Assembly (NCBI GenBank): GCA_016212665.1
Contig: JACREZ010000037.1
Location: forward strand, 1 to 64,000
Origin: Ignavibacteriota bacterium
GTDB lineage: Bacteria; Bacteroidota; Ignavibacteria; UBA10030; SZUA-254
Reading direction: 5' to 3'
Length of the DNA: 64,000 bases
The notes under the pieces were generated by a model. The model was not told where the DNA came from, did not search any database, and was given only the letters and a program-made list of their open reading frames with translations. Both the position numbers and the translations under genes were made by a program. Below, in pieces: positions 12,158 to 16,611 of the stretch (its first letter is position 1; every line of letters starts with the position of its first letter).

Positions 12158-12313
12158 TGAACTCCTAATTTATTACATGTGAGTCCAATAATACGATAAA
12201 TTTCGCTTAGAATCAAAGTACCTTTGATAGCAAGATTTGACATATTCCAAATGATTTCTTAGTTTCAAGTAATTCAAATACTTTACTCATCATTTTACTA
12301 TTAGGAATTGTCC

Positions 12314-15300
12314 ATGAGAGTCTTTCGATTCATTACTTCGCTCATCATTTTTAGCCTGCTCGTTCTTCCCTCCATAGTTCTTGCTCAGAAAAGTTGGCTT
12401 GAACAATTCTCAATAGAAAAAGCAAATCAATGGCAGAAAGACCGACTCGTTGCTGAATCAATAGCAACGAAATTGAAAATGCCTGTTCGGGCAGAACGCA
12501 AAGATGGTTCAACCTTCGAACTCCAACGCTTTGAAAACGGCAGACCCGTTATTTTTAAGACAGATAATATCAACGCGGCAAAAACAATTTCAACTAATAA
12601 AGTTCAACCCGGTGGCAGTTCGGGTTACAACTTAACCGGTGCAACAGATACATTAGGTGAATGGGATGCAGGTGGCATCAAGACAACGCATCAGGAATTC
12701 ACCGGCAGAGTAATTCAATCGCAAGGAGGTCTGCATCAACACTCCACTCACGTAGCGGGAACCATGATTGCGGCAGGCGTAACAGCCAATGCAAAAGGAA
12801 TGGCATATCAGGCAAAATTAAAAGCGTATGATTGGAACAGTGATGATGCGGAAATGGCTACAGCCGCATCCGCAGGGATGAAAGTCTCTAACCATTCGTA
12901 TGGAACAATTACCGGATGGGATTTCGATTATTTCGGGGACGGGCAATATGCCTGGTTCGGTGATACACTGATTAGTAAAACGGAAGATTATTCTTTCGGG
13001 TATTATGATAACGATGCAAAAACATGGGATGATATTGCGTACAATGCACCAAACTATTTAATTGTTGTTTCCGCAGGGAATGACAGAGGTGAAGGTCCTT
13101 ATTATGCGCTCAGCCACTGGATATTTGCAAGTGGTCAATGGCGTTGGGTCTATGGACAACGGGATGAAGATGGTGGCTCCACAGGTTACGATTGTATTTC
13201 CGGCACAAGTCTTTCAAAAAATGTTCTCTCTGTCGGGTCTGTAAAAGATTTGACGAGTGGTTATACGAACGCTTCCGCAGTGTTGGCAGAATCCTACACG
13301 GCATGGGGACCAACAGATGATGGACGTATCAAACCCGATGTCGTTGCGAATGGACAATCGTTGTATTCAACCCTTGAAACATCAACCACTGCTTATGGTT
13401 CTTTGTCCGGTACTTCGATGGCTTCACCATCAGTTGCCGGTTCTGTCGGCTTATTGCTTGAACAACAAAAACGGATGCAGGGAACAATTCCGCTTCGTTC
13501 ATCAACAATGAAAGCGATTCTCATTCAAACTGCTGATGAAGCAGGAAGCGCAACCGGTCCTGATTATTCATTTGGATGGGGATTAGTCAATACAAACAAG
13601 GCAGTTCAATTGATGAAGCAAGATTCGATTGACGGTTACGGCTCGCATATTCAGGAACAGCAACTCACGCAAGGTGGAACGTATGAAATTCAACTTTCTT
13701 CAAGCGGAACACAAGCGTTACGCGCGACACTCTGCTGGACAGACCCTTCAGGGACAATTCGTCCCATTGCTCTCGATGATACCACAAGAATGTTAGTGAA
13801 CGACCTTGATTTGAGAATCATCAAAAATGCAACCGGCACAACATACTCTCCCTGGGTGTTGGATGTATTCAATCCCGCGAACGCCGCAACAACCGGAGAT
13901 AATAATCGTGATAACGTCGAGCAAGTGTATGTCGCTTCTCCTTCAAAAGGAACTTATACTCTCCGTGTGACGCACAAAGGAACGCTCACGGGCGGCGCAC
14001 AAAACTTCTCACTCGTCATTAGCGGCAACATATTCAACATCGGACAGTTGGCGCATTTCCAAACAGACACAGTAAAGATTTCACTCCTGCCGAACGATGC
14101 GACAACCAAAACATTTCGCCTGTTCAATAACGGAGACGACACACTGACGTACAGCACAAGTTACACACCACCGATGTGGATGACCATTTCGAACGATGCC
14201 GGTGAGATTGTCGAATATGATTCATCCTTGCTCCAATTAAACATCAACACACAGGATTTAAGTATGTGGACGACGTACAACAGTTCATTTACTCTTACCA
14301 CGAACGATCCGGCTCAAACGACAAAGACAATTTATGTCGTGTTGAACACGCTCGGACCGCTCATCTCGGCTCCTCCATCTTCCGTTGTGATTGAAACAGA
14401 ATTAGCACAAATCAAATATGATACAATAGCGCTTTCAAACGATGGATATTCCGCACTGAATTATCTCATCACTTCAAGTTCTTCCATGATGGCTTCCGGC
14501 GGTTCTGTATTTCCATCATGGTTAACCGTTAGTTCTGATAACGGAACACTGGCTCCGGATGAATCGCTTGACATCGTTCTCACTTTTGACCCTACATCCG
14601 TTCCTGTCGGAGATTATTCAACAACACTCTACTTCTTCAGCAATGATTCGTTGTCAGGAACATTAGAGACAACTCTTGATTTTCATGTTGCTTCACGCAG
14701 GGTTATTTCGGTTGATGTCACTTCAAGATGGAATATTGTGTCTGTTCCAATCAAAGCATTTTCATTTGCTAAGACGGCGCTTTTCCCGAGTGCAATTTCT
14801 GATGCGTTCAAGTACGCCGACGGATACTTCAGTCAAGCAACACTTGAAACCGGAAATGGATATTGGATGAAATTCAATTCTGTCGAAACAATACCGGTTG
14901 ATGGCTACTTGCTTCTCAATGATTCAATAGATGTTGTAAACGGTTGGAATATTATCGGCTCACTTTCTTATCCTGTTGATGTCGCAACAATCACCAGTGA
15001 ACCGGCAGGACTTGTCACAAGTGAATTTGTTGGATTTGAGAACGGATATTTTTCCTCCGATTCAATCATGCCGGGAAAAGCATATTGGGTGAAAGTTTCC
15101 GGCAACGGAAAATTATTGCTTTCAACCAATCCGCTCCTGAATGCCTCAAACAGAATTCACATTATTCCAACGACTGAGTTACCGCCCCCACCGCCTGAAG
15201 GCGATGGCAATGACAATCATCCGGTAAAACCAAGTGAATTTGCTCTCGAACAGAATTACCCCAATCCGTTTAACCCGACGACAAATTTCGGATTGCGAAT

Positions 15301-15526
15301 TGCGGATTTCTCAGCCAACGGCGGCTCCGCTTCTGGCGGAGGATTTGTGACATTGAAAGTATTTAATGTCATAGGAGTGGAAGTTGCCACCGTTCTCAAT
15401 GAAGCAATGGAACCGGGAGTGTATAACATTCAGTGGAATGCAAGTGCATTGCCAAGCGGATTATATTTCTACAAACTCACCGCCGGTTCGTTTACGGATG
15501 TGAAGAAATTAATTTTGATGAAGTGA
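12314..15526 (+). CDS. T9SS-exported S8 subtilisin-like serine protease
   Basis: The protein is about 1070 residues, starting at ATG 12314 with AGGA 8 nt upstream; an in-frame TTG two codons earlier is less likely. A signal peptide (to ...SIVLAQ) is followed by an S8 domain with the catalytic triad recognisable as GEWDAG, HSTHVAGT and GTSMASPSVAG. C-terminal of this lie a P/jelly-roll-like domain (about 440-570), choice-of-anchor-like beta domains, a paired domain beginning SRWNIVSVPI with GYWMKF, also present in the 48813 protein, and a T9SS sorting domain ([15 protein letters not shown] to end). It is exported through the outer membrane. The sorting domain contains an unusual Gly/Ser insert encoded in part by short repeats. 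Confidence 0.88.
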   Translation: MRVFRFITSLIIFSLLVLPSIVLAQKSWLEQFSIEKANQWQKDRLVAESIATKLKMPVRAERKDGSTFELQRFENGRPVIFKTDNINAAKTISTNKVQPGGSSGYNLTGATDTLGEWDAGGIKTTHQEFTGRVIQSQGGLHQHSTHVAGTMIAAGVTANAKGMAYQAKLKAYDWNSDDAEMATAASAGMKVSNHSYGTITGWDFDYFGDGQYAWFGDTLISKTEDYSFGYYDNDAKTWDDIAYNAPNYLIVVSAGNDRGEGPYYALSHWIFASGQWRWVYGQRDEDGGSTGYDCISGTSLSKNVLSVGSVKDLTSGYTNASAVLAESYTAWGPTDDGRIKPDVVANGQSLYSTLETSTTAYGSLSGTSMASPSVAGSVGLLLEQQKRMQGTIPLRSSTMKAILIQTADEAGSATGPDYSFGWGLVNTNKAVQLMKQDSIDGYGSHIQEQQLTQGGTYEIQLSSSGTQALRATLCWTDPSGTIRPIALDDTTRMLVNDLDLRIIKNATGTTYSPWVLDVFNPANAATTGDNNRDNVEQVYVASPSKGTYTLRVTHKGTLTGGAQNFSLVISGNIFNIGQLAHFQTDTVKISLLPNDATTKTFRLFNNGDDTLTYSTSYTPPMWMTISNDAGEIVEYDSSLLQLNINTQDLSMWTTYNSSFTLTTNDPAQTTKTIYVVLNTLGPLISAPPSSVVIETELAQIKYDTIALSNDGYSALNYLITSSSSMMASGGSVFPSWLTVSSDNGTLAPDESLDIVLTFDPTSVPVGDYSTTLYFFSNDSLSGTLETTLDFHVASRRVISVDVTSRWNIVSVPIKAFSFAKTALFPSAISDAFKYADGYFSQATLETGNGYWMKFNSVETIPVDGYLLLNDSIDVVNGWNIIGSLSYPVDVATITSEPAGLVTSEFVGFENGYFSSDSIMPGKAYWVKVSGNGKLLLSTNPLLNASNRIHIIPTTELPPPPPEGDGNDNHPVKPSEFALEQNYPNPFNPTTNFGLRIADFSANGGSASGGGFVTLKVFNVIGVEVATVLNEAMEPGVYNIQWNASALPSGLYFYKLTAGSFTDVKKLILMK

Positions 15527-15551: not shown

Positions 15552-15582
15552 TTTGAATTATTTGATTCTCTTTGTATTATTG
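15552..15582 (+). promoter_or_regulatory. Possible Bacteroidota-type promoter for the his operon
   Basis: TTTG (15552-15555) and TATTATTG (15575-15582) are separated by 19 nt and resemble the TTTG / TAnnTTTG (-33/-7) promoter of Bacteroidota, with one mismatch in the -7 box. It would start transcription just before the leader peptide. The evidence is weak because the region is AT-rich. Confidence 0.3.
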
Positions 15583-15592
15583 AACCAATAAA

Positions 15593-15649
15593 ATGAAATA
15601 TTTTCAACAACACCTTCATGCTTTACATTCTTGCACTCAGACGAGTTAG
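15593..15649 (+). CDS. hisL: Histidine operon leader peptide (18 codons)
   Basis: This short frame from ATG 15593 to TAG 15649 encodes MKYFQQHLHALHSCTQTS, with three His codons (CAC 15611, CAT 15617, CAT 15626) within six codons. It lies 30 nt upstream of a perfect intrinsic terminator, which itself precedes hisG. No Shine-Dalgarno is visible, but the preceding bases are A-rich, as in Bacteroidota and as for the his genes themselves. Its stop codon overlaps the arm of a potential antiterminator. These properties match a ribosome-stalling leader for amino-acid attenuation; I infer the function from position and His density. Confidence 0.65.
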   Translation: MKYFQQHLHALHSCTQTS

Positions 15650-15710
15650 GAATGATATGTAATTTTTAAGATTCTTCTAAACCCGTCTAAGTATTCAGAC
15701 GGGTTTTTTT
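15639..15710 (+). terminator. his attenuator: antiterminator arm plus intrinsic terminator
   Basis: The terminator stem AAACCCGTCT/AGACGGGTTT (15679-15688 and 15697-15706) is 10 bp, with an 8-nt loop, and its T-tract runs through 15710. The 5' arm can alternatively pair with AGACGAGTT (15639-15647) at the end of the leader peptide: AGACG with CGTCT plus GTT with AAC, one mismatch between. A ribosome stalled at the His codons would leave 15639-15647 free to form the antiterminator; one that reaches the stop at 15649 would cover it and allow termination. Confidence 0.68.
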
Positions 15711-15753
15711 ATTTTTACACACCTTCAGTTTGTCTATATTATTATTGAAAAAA

Positions 15754-16611
15754 ATGAATAAAATAAAAATTGCAATTCAAAAAAGTGGCCGTTTAAGTGA
15801 AAAATCACTCGAACTGCTAAAAAATTGTGGCATTAAATTATCTAACGGTGATAGAAAGCTAAAAACAGAAGCACAAAATTTTCCGATAGAAGTGCTGTTT
15901 CTTCGAGATAATGATATTCCACAATACATAGAGCAAGGCGTCGCCGATATCGGCATCTTGGGCGAGAATGAGGTTTGGGAAACCGATAAAAATATAAACA
16001 TTTTAGAAAAACTTGGTTTTGCTGTATGTAAATTATCGTTAGCGATTCCGAAAGAAGAAAACTATACGGGGCTGTCGTATTTCAATAATAAAAAAGTAGC
16101 AACTAGTTATCCAAAAATCATTAGTAAGTTTTTTGAAGAACACAATATTGCCGTTGAGATTGAAGAGATTGGAGGAAGTGTAGAAATTGCCCCAAGTATC
16201 GGATTGGCAGATGGAATTTTTGATATCGTAAGTTCGGGCAGTACTCTTTTAATGAATGGGTTAAAAGAAGTTGAAATTGTATTGAAAAGTGAGGCGGTAC
16301 TTATCAGTAACAAAAACTTAAATGAGGAAAAAAAACTCATTCTTGATAAGTTATTATTTAGAATTAATGCTGTTCGTAAATCATCTGAAAATAAATACAT
16401 TTTGCTTAACGCTCCCAACGAAGCTATATCAAAAATTTCAAGCATACTTCCCGGTATGAAAAGCCCAACTATTTTACCTCTTGCTGCAAAAGGTTGGAGT
16501 AGTATCCACTCGGTGGTAAAAGAAGATGAGTTTTGGGATATTATAGACCAATTAAAAAGTCTTGGCGCCGAAGGAATATTGGTTGTACCTATTGAAAAAA
16601 TGATTGTGTAA
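15754..16611 (+). CDS. hisG: ATP phosphoribosyltransferase HisG (long form)
   Basis: The first enzyme of histidine synthesis, it couples ATP and PRPP. The protein is 285 residues from ATG 15754 (MNKIKIAIQKSGRL), the long HisG form with a C-terminal ACT-like regulatory domain (GMKSPTILPLAAKGW region), so histidine feedback without HisZ is expected. IGGSVEIAPSIGLADGIFDIVSSGSTL is the PRPP-binding region. A TTG further upstream (15730) is in frame but not needed. No Shine-Dalgarno is present; the leader is A-rich. It is followed with zero spacing by hisD. The gene is markedly more AT-rich than the flanking genes. Confidence 0.95.
   Translation: MNKIKIAIQKSGRLSEKSLELLKNCGIKLSNGDRKLKTEAQNFPIEVLFLRDNDIPQYIEQGVADIGILGENEVWETDKNINILEKLGFAVCKLSLAIPKEENYTGLSYFNNKKVATSYPKIISKFFEEHNIAVEIEEIGGSVEIAPSIGLADGIFDIVSSGSTLLMNGLKEVEIVLKSEAVLISNKNLNEEKKLILDKLLFRINAVRKSSENKYILLNAPNEAISKISSILPGMKSPTILPLAAKGWSSIHSVVKEDEFWDIIDQLKSLGAEGILVVPIEKMIV

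What the first reader, a model, noticed from the sequence alone, without database searches (positions are those of the whole stretch)
15593..15710. Ribosome-mediated attenuator with a His-rich leader peptide ahead of a Bacteroidota-type his operon
An 18-codon frame (MKYFQQHLHALHSCTQTS) with three His codons in six positions precedes a perfect 10-bp terminator with a T7 tract. The terminator's left arm can instead pair with AGACGAGTT, which lies at the end of the leader peptide. Ribosome stalling at His codons leaves that arm free, while completion of translation covers it. This is the logic of classical enterobacterial his attenuation, but with no Shine-Dalgarno and only three spaced His codons, in an Ignavibacteria-like genome.
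Basis: partly seen in the sequence, partly recalled or inferred. Interest (0 to 1): 0.78.

Follow-up and report, generated by a model that had tools for sequence, protein, structure and literature searches.

The report
Imported histidine attenuator before his operon
A short RNA switch that should turn on the histidine-making genes when histidine runs out sits in front of a histidine operon that this bacterium acquired, switch included, from another lineage; it works like the textbook enterobacterial switch but belongs to a separate, hardly described family found across Bacteroidota.

Summary
The 18-codon frame (15593-15649), the 10-bp terminator (15679-15706) and the competing pairing are all present. 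A profile built from Bacteroidota hisG leaders with the window left out finds the site at E=3e-18. Across Bacteroidota, hisG is preceded by a leader of type M...QLHHHHFHTCSQAR followed by the same terminator. Terminator, antiterminator and a pause hairpin are conserved in 44 aligned leaders; compensatory changes are clear in the terminator, few in the antiterminator. The window copy is derived: it keeps 3 of about 5 His codons.

The HisG tree places the window inside Bacteroidia. Two genomes of its own family have a different hisG beside a TrpR-family (HisR-like) repressor gene; this genome has none. So the operon arrived by transfer with its attenuator. Other class members have separate His-leader attenuators, mostly with the same architecture but unrelated arm sequences.

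New lead, absent from the window: most Bacteroidota leaders carry a 12-nt element before hisG that can pair with the terminator left arm and loop or with the hisG start codon, suggesting a linked translational lock.

No expression data exist here. Known kind, not in Rfam; a Flavobacterium study had flagged the hisG leader.

The parts
15567..15574 (+). weak Bacteroidota-type -7 box TCTCTTTG (consensus TAnnTTTG, 5 of 6 fixed positions), 18 nt before the leader ATG; proposal only
   Evidence: Read from the sequence printed. In 50 of 57 relatives a full TAnnTTTG lies upstream of the leader ATG at a median of 19 nt; the window has only imperfect matches.
15593..15649 (+). leader peptide ORF MKYFQQHLHALHSCTQTS, His codons at 15611-15613, 15617-15619, 15626-15628
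   Evidence: homologous frame in Bacteroidota leaders; leave-one-out HMM E=3.1e-18
15626..15654 (+). pause (1:2) hairpin CATTCTTG / TAGGAATG with inner ACTC/GAGT; encloses arm A
   Evidence: -11.4 kcal/mol, z -3.7; family-wide pause hairpin 80% of cells paired versus 32-58% for slid controls
15635..15647 (+). arm A (antiterminator 5' arm) ACTCAGACGAGTT at the end of the leader ORF
   Evidence: A:B duplex -10.5 kcal/mol, P=0.016 against shuffles; family-wide 88.6% of cells paired versus at most 48% in slid controls
15679..15692 (+). arm B: terminator left arm plus start of loop, alternative partner of A
15679..15706 (+). intrinsic terminator hairpin (B:C)
   Evidence: 10 perfect pairs; 95.5% of cells paired across 44 leaders, 4 pairs changed on both sides
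15707..15716 (+). T tract of the terminator
15717..15753 (+). spacer to hisG; the D element of Bacteroidota relatives is not detectable here
   Evidence: pairing with loop and with start no better than shuffled or swapped
15754..16611 (+). hisG, ATP phosphoribosyltransferase, first gene of the controlled operon
   Evidence: TIGR00070 and TIGR03455; 82% identical to Bacteroidota homologue L031
16612..22676 (+). rest of the his operon (hisD, hisC, bifunctional hisB, hisH, hisA, hisF, hisIE)
   Evidence: ORFs; HisD, HisB and HisIE families confirmed; hisC, H, A, F named from their sequence and operon position only

Best explanation
This is a ribosome-mediated transcription attenuator for the his operon. 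RNA polymerase starts just upstream of the leader ORF and a ribosome follows it. With enough His-tRNA the ribosome reaches the stop codon at 15647, covers arm A, and arm B pairs with C to form the terminator, so transcription stops before hisG. When charged His-tRNA is short the ribosome stalls at the His codons, which opens the pause hairpin but leaves A free; A pairs with B, the terminator cannot form, and hisG-hisIE are transcribed. With no translation the pause hairpin traps A and termination is the default. Shown here: the parts, their conservation and the mutually exclusive pairings. Inferred: stalling, termination and response to histidine. By ribosome footprint (general knowledge) the second His codon should be the most effective stall site, because the third lies so close to A that a stalled ribosome would cover part of it. 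The whole unit was inherited with an operon of Bacteroidota origin.
For: Homology of the whole leader to Bacteroidota hisG leaders with the window held out. The 44 aligned leaders keep terminator (95.5% of cells), antiterminator (88.6%) and pause hairpin (80.2%), against at most 58% when partners are slid by 1-3 columns. Compensatory changes are clear for the terminator (4 pairs, 19 cells); for A:B they are few, for example G-C to A-U at columns 60/126 in 3 leaders. In five class relatives the leader has 5-6 His codons but entirely different arm sequences; A:B complementarity beyond shuffles is retained in four of them (L118, L130, L004, L002). HisG tree nests the window in Bacteroidia.
Against: No expression, ribosome profiling or termination data. 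The window copy has only three non-adjacent His codons and a weak promoter match, so its response may be weaker than in relatives. The A:B helix has two mismatches. In class relative L138 the A:B pairing is not better than shuffles. The number of A:B pairs changed on both sides does not exceed column shuffles.
Confidence: 0.88

Rival explanations
1. The hairpin is only the 3' terminator of the upstream secreted protease gene (stop at 15526), and hisG has its own promoter after it; the small ORF is chance.
For: The terminator is 150 nt downstream of the protease stop and lies in the same direction; a sigma-70-like match exists at 15714-15742.
Against: Leader, pause hairpin and terminator are conserved upstream of hisG in many families of Bacteroidota. 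The leave-one-out profile covers the entire leader, not just the terminator. The promoter scan finds fewer sites than shuffles. The hairpin may still end protease transcripts in addition.
Confidence: 0.05
2. A decaying remnant of a transferred attenuator: the parts are recognisable but no longer regulate, and the terminator merely lowers basal expression.
For: Two of about five His codons lost, lower pause stem changed, D element lost, -7 box imperfect.
Against: The terminator is perfect; arm A differs from consensus (CAGGCGAG to CAGACGAG) in a way that keeps pairing with B (G-U to A-U at columns 61/125); a 12-bp pause hairpin is still formed; the reading frame is intact.
Confidence: 0.1
3. 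A T-box, riboswitch or protein-dependent terminator controls hisG here, and the leader ORF is not sensed.
For: Terminator-based control of his genes by T-boxes is known in Firmicutes (PMC9413887).
Against: No Rfam family reaches its threshold in this region and T-box is not among even the weak matches. His codons are among the most conserved columns of the leader. No TrpR-family (HisR) gene in this genome.
Confidence: 0.03

Closest known systems
Enterobacterial his operon leader (Rfam RF00514 His_leader; HisL)
   Same: His-codon leader peptide, pause hairpin, antiterminator and terminator as mutually exclusive stems upstream of hisG; same regulatory logic
   Different: No sequence relationship detectable; RF00514 does not match even at E up to 5. 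Three His codons here and mostly 4-5 in relatives rather than seven in a row (the latter from general knowledge), no Shine-Dalgarno, Bacteroidota-type promoter in relatives
Structured hisG 5' element of Flavobacterium psychrophilum (PMC9723704)
   Same: Same position, same phylum; that study reports a structured 5' region upstream of hisG, conserved in Flavobacteriaceae and without Rfam match, and leader-peptide attenuation clues for amino-acid operons. Probably the same family
   Different: The main text passages read here do not give leader sequence or mechanism for hisG; this work extends the family across Bacteroidota and to transferred operons outside Bacteroidia
His attenuators of some Firmicutes groups (PMC9413887)
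   Same: Leader peptides with three to five His codons and alternative hairpins
   Different: Different phylum and gene context; PMC9413887 does not mention Bacteroidota
HisR (TrpR-family) repressor control of his operons (PMC9413887)
   Same: A TrpR-family gene lies next to hisG in two genomes of the same family (L173, L174), with a HisR-box-like palindrome before hisG in related genomes
   Different: Repressor-based; no such gene in this genome

Membership tests
Ribosome-mediated (classical) amino-acid attenuators | Short leader ORF enriched in codons of the regulated amino acid | tested here: met
   3 His of 18 codons in the window, 4-5 His in most relatives, frame conserved
Ribosome-mediated (classical) amino-acid attenuators | Intrinsic terminator between leader ORF and first structural gene | tested here: met
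   15679-15716, conserved with compensatory changes
Ribosome-mediated (classical) amino-acid attenuators | Mutually exclusive antiterminator using the terminator left arm, placed so that a ribosome at the stop codon covers it | tested here: met
   A 15635-15647 reaches the stop codon; pairing conserved
Ribosome-mediated (classical) amino-acid attenuators | Pause/protector hairpin that traps the antiterminator arm when there is no translation | tested here: met
   15626-15654, z -3.7; conserved
Ribosome-mediated (classical) amino-acid attenuators | Read-through depends on charged tRNA level | not testable with these tools
   needs a growth and expression experiment
Rfam RF00514 His_leader | Covariance-model match at gathering score | tested here: not met
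   no match at gathering or at E<=5
Bacteroidota hisG leader family (profile built here) | Match to a profile made without the window | tested here: met
   HMM E=3.1e-18; covariance model including the window 90 bits
Bacteroidota hisG leader family (profile built here) | D element before hisG that pairs with terminator arm/loop and start codon (present in most, not all, relatives) | tested here: not met
   window pairing at shuffled or swapped level
T-box leaders | T-box covariance-model match | tested here: not met

The most novel reading that the evidence does not exclude
In Bacteroidota the his attenuator is a two-stage switch. A 12-nt element D, usually about 15 nt before the hisG ATG, can pair either with the terminator left arm plus loop or with the hisG start codon region, which the terminator loop mimics. 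If the terminator hairpin forms and polymerase leaks through, D folds onto the start codon and blocks translation; if the antiterminator path is taken, D latches onto B and the loop, and the start codon is free. So one RNA decision controls both transcription and translation. The window copy has lost this second stage.
Probability: 0.45. Interest if true: 0.75.

Novelty: new member of a known kind. Interest (0 to 1): 0.52.

Why it matters
It shows that a phylum with unusual promoters and no Shine-Dalgarno sites has its own widespread His-leader attenuator, absent from Rfam, and that such a switch can move between lineages together with its operon, into a family whose other members either lack this gene or keep it next to a repressor gene. 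Leaders with unrelated sequence but the same architecture in one class point to repeated evolution or very fast turnover of the same logic. The D element of relatives makes a directly testable case of attenuation coupled to translation control.

Tried and rejected
Rfam scan at gathering and permissive thresholds: only a tRNA and chance-level hits. Weak R1 hits at 35-50 bits in class genomes were not counted as members; three of them (L118, L130, L138) lie upstream of hisG and were examined separately. First attempts with hisG coordinates off frame failed. Paper searches for Bacteroidetes his leaders gave nothing beyond PMC9723704. BMS3Abin03 has no useful taxonomy record or paper. The sigma-70 promoter scan is uninformative. 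The idea that the terminator is merely the end of the protease gene was rejected by the hisG-linked conservation.

Full report
OBSERVATION. The window holds, on the + strand, a leader ORF at 15593-15649 (MKYFQQHLHALHSCTQTS), a perfect 10-bp terminator at 15679-15706 with a T tract, and hisG from 15754. In addition a pause hairpin (15626-15654, -11.4 kcal/mol, z -3.7) encloses that arm. The three structures exclude one another.

HOMOLOGY. HisG relatives were collected from public genomes. Upstream of hisG about 65 of 80 loci, labelled Flavobacteriales, Chitinophagales, Bacteroidales and others, carry a leader of the form M...QLHHHHFHTCSQAR followed by CCCGTCTGAGTAAA...CAGACGGG and a T tract. 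A profile made from 43 of these, without the window, finds 15590-15709 at E=3.1e-18. Against the consensus the window keeps His at positions 7, 9 and 12 and has lost those at 8 and 10.

CONSERVATION OF THE COMPETING STEMS. In the 44-sequence alignment the terminator forms in 95.5% of cells with four pairs changed on both sides; the antiterminator in 88.6%, against 17-48% when partners are slid; the pause hairpin in 80.2%, against 32-58%. The His codons themselves are the 5' arm of the lower pause stem in most relatives. For the antiterminator, pairs changed on both sides are few, so covariation alone is modest there; the stronger argument is the next paragraph.

INDEPENDENT LEADERS IN THE SAME CLASS. 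Native hisG genes in other genomes of the class (about 48% identity to the window HisG; L118, L130, L138, L004) and a divergent one (L002, 58%) have their own leaders with 5-6 His codons, for example MKIRTHLHHHHIYSLR and MKQFLHIHHHHILPDGKRDDAM, followed by terminators of unrelated sequence. In four of the five, the leader end pairs with the terminator left arm beyond shuffles (P 0.000-0.014); in L138 it does not. The architecture is thus largely conserved where the sequence is not. The arms were picked by eye before the calculation, which favours a positive result somewhat.

ORIGIN. A HisG tree of 142 rows puts the window, bacterium BMS3Abin03 (L070; its leader region reads the same as L115 from G336 of the class) and G214 (L116) among Bacteroidia, at separate places, while nearly all other class members form a separate, strongly supported group (L002 is also outside it, on a long branch). 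Only these three of 391 class genomes have a Bacteroidota-type leader of 90 bits or more. Within the window's family most genomes show no hisG match, including two incomplete genomes of its genus; G010 and G012 have a native hisG next to a TrpR-family gene, and the window's genome has no such gene. Upstream of hisG in related genomes lies CACTTTA-N6-TAAAG, which fits the published HisR consensus cacTTTAnnnnnnTAAAgtg (PMC9413887). PMC8305728 already proposed transfer of his operons into Ignavibacterium album and Melioribacter roseus from Bacteroidota or Balneolota.

MECHANISM. Best supported is classical ribosome-mediated attenuation, as set out in the explanation section. Using the usual ribosome footprint (general knowledge), stalling at His9 should open the pause hairpin while leaving arm A free, stalling at His7 should hardly touch the hairpin, and stalling at His12 should cover part of A. 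A ribosome at the stop codon covers A. These are inferences.

A FURTHER ELEMENT IN RELATIVES. In most Bacteroidota leaders a 12-nt element D sits about 15 nt before the hisG ATG. It pairs with the terminator left arm plus loop in 33 of 48 cluster representatives with at least 10 of 12 pairs, and pair types vary together (C-G or U-A at one position; U-A, C-G or A-U at another). It also pairs with the hisG start region. For both partners the own pairing is better than with partners swapped between species (0 of 2000 permutations at cluster thresholds 0.75 and 0.65; at most 1 of 2000 at 0.55), while three control segments show no significant effect. Relatedness is only partly controlled by this clustering. 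Folding suggests two states: terminator hairpin plus D on the start codon, or D on the terminator arm and loop with the start free; in L116 and L070 the calculation does not show the release, and some leaders with D, such as L058, lack the start pairing. The window has no D.

NOVELTY. The kind is known. RF00514 does not match. PMC9723704 reported a conserved structured element upstream of hisG in Flavobacteriaceae without Rfam match and leader-peptide clues for amino-acid operons, so the family is not wholly new. A 2010 survey cited in PMC4833913 may also have included this phylum; it could not be read.

Noticed in passing
Bacteroidota loci, for example L031:2474-2485 (D) and 2501-2512 (hisG start); also L103, L109, L165: 12-nt element D before the hisG ATG, complementary both to the terminator left arm plus loop and to the hisG start region; possible translational latch. 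Not present in the window.
   Followed up: partly
L118, L130, L138, L004, L002 (class relatives): Native hisG genes with their own His-rich leaders and terminators of unrelated sequence but the same architecture.
   Followed up: partly
L005-L012, L173, L174: Relatives whose hisG is preceded by a TrpR-family (HisR/YerC-like) gene and a palindrome matching the published HisR box; the HisR survey PMC9413887 does not mention Bacteroidota.
   Followed up: partly
L039, L041, L044, within about 150 nt upstream of hisG: Three Bacteroidota hisG loci without the attenuator share another conserved upstream stretch ending ...ACGTTTACCC..GGGTGTTATT.ATTA (or similar).
   Followed up: no
L056 and L083: Contigs labelled Kuenenia and Alphaproteobacteria carry Bacteroidota-like hisG loci; probably mis-binned.
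   Followed up: no
window 12308-15526: Upstream gene is a subtilisin-like protease with a T9SS type A sorting domain (TIGR04183); the same hairpin may also end its transcripts.
   Followed up: no
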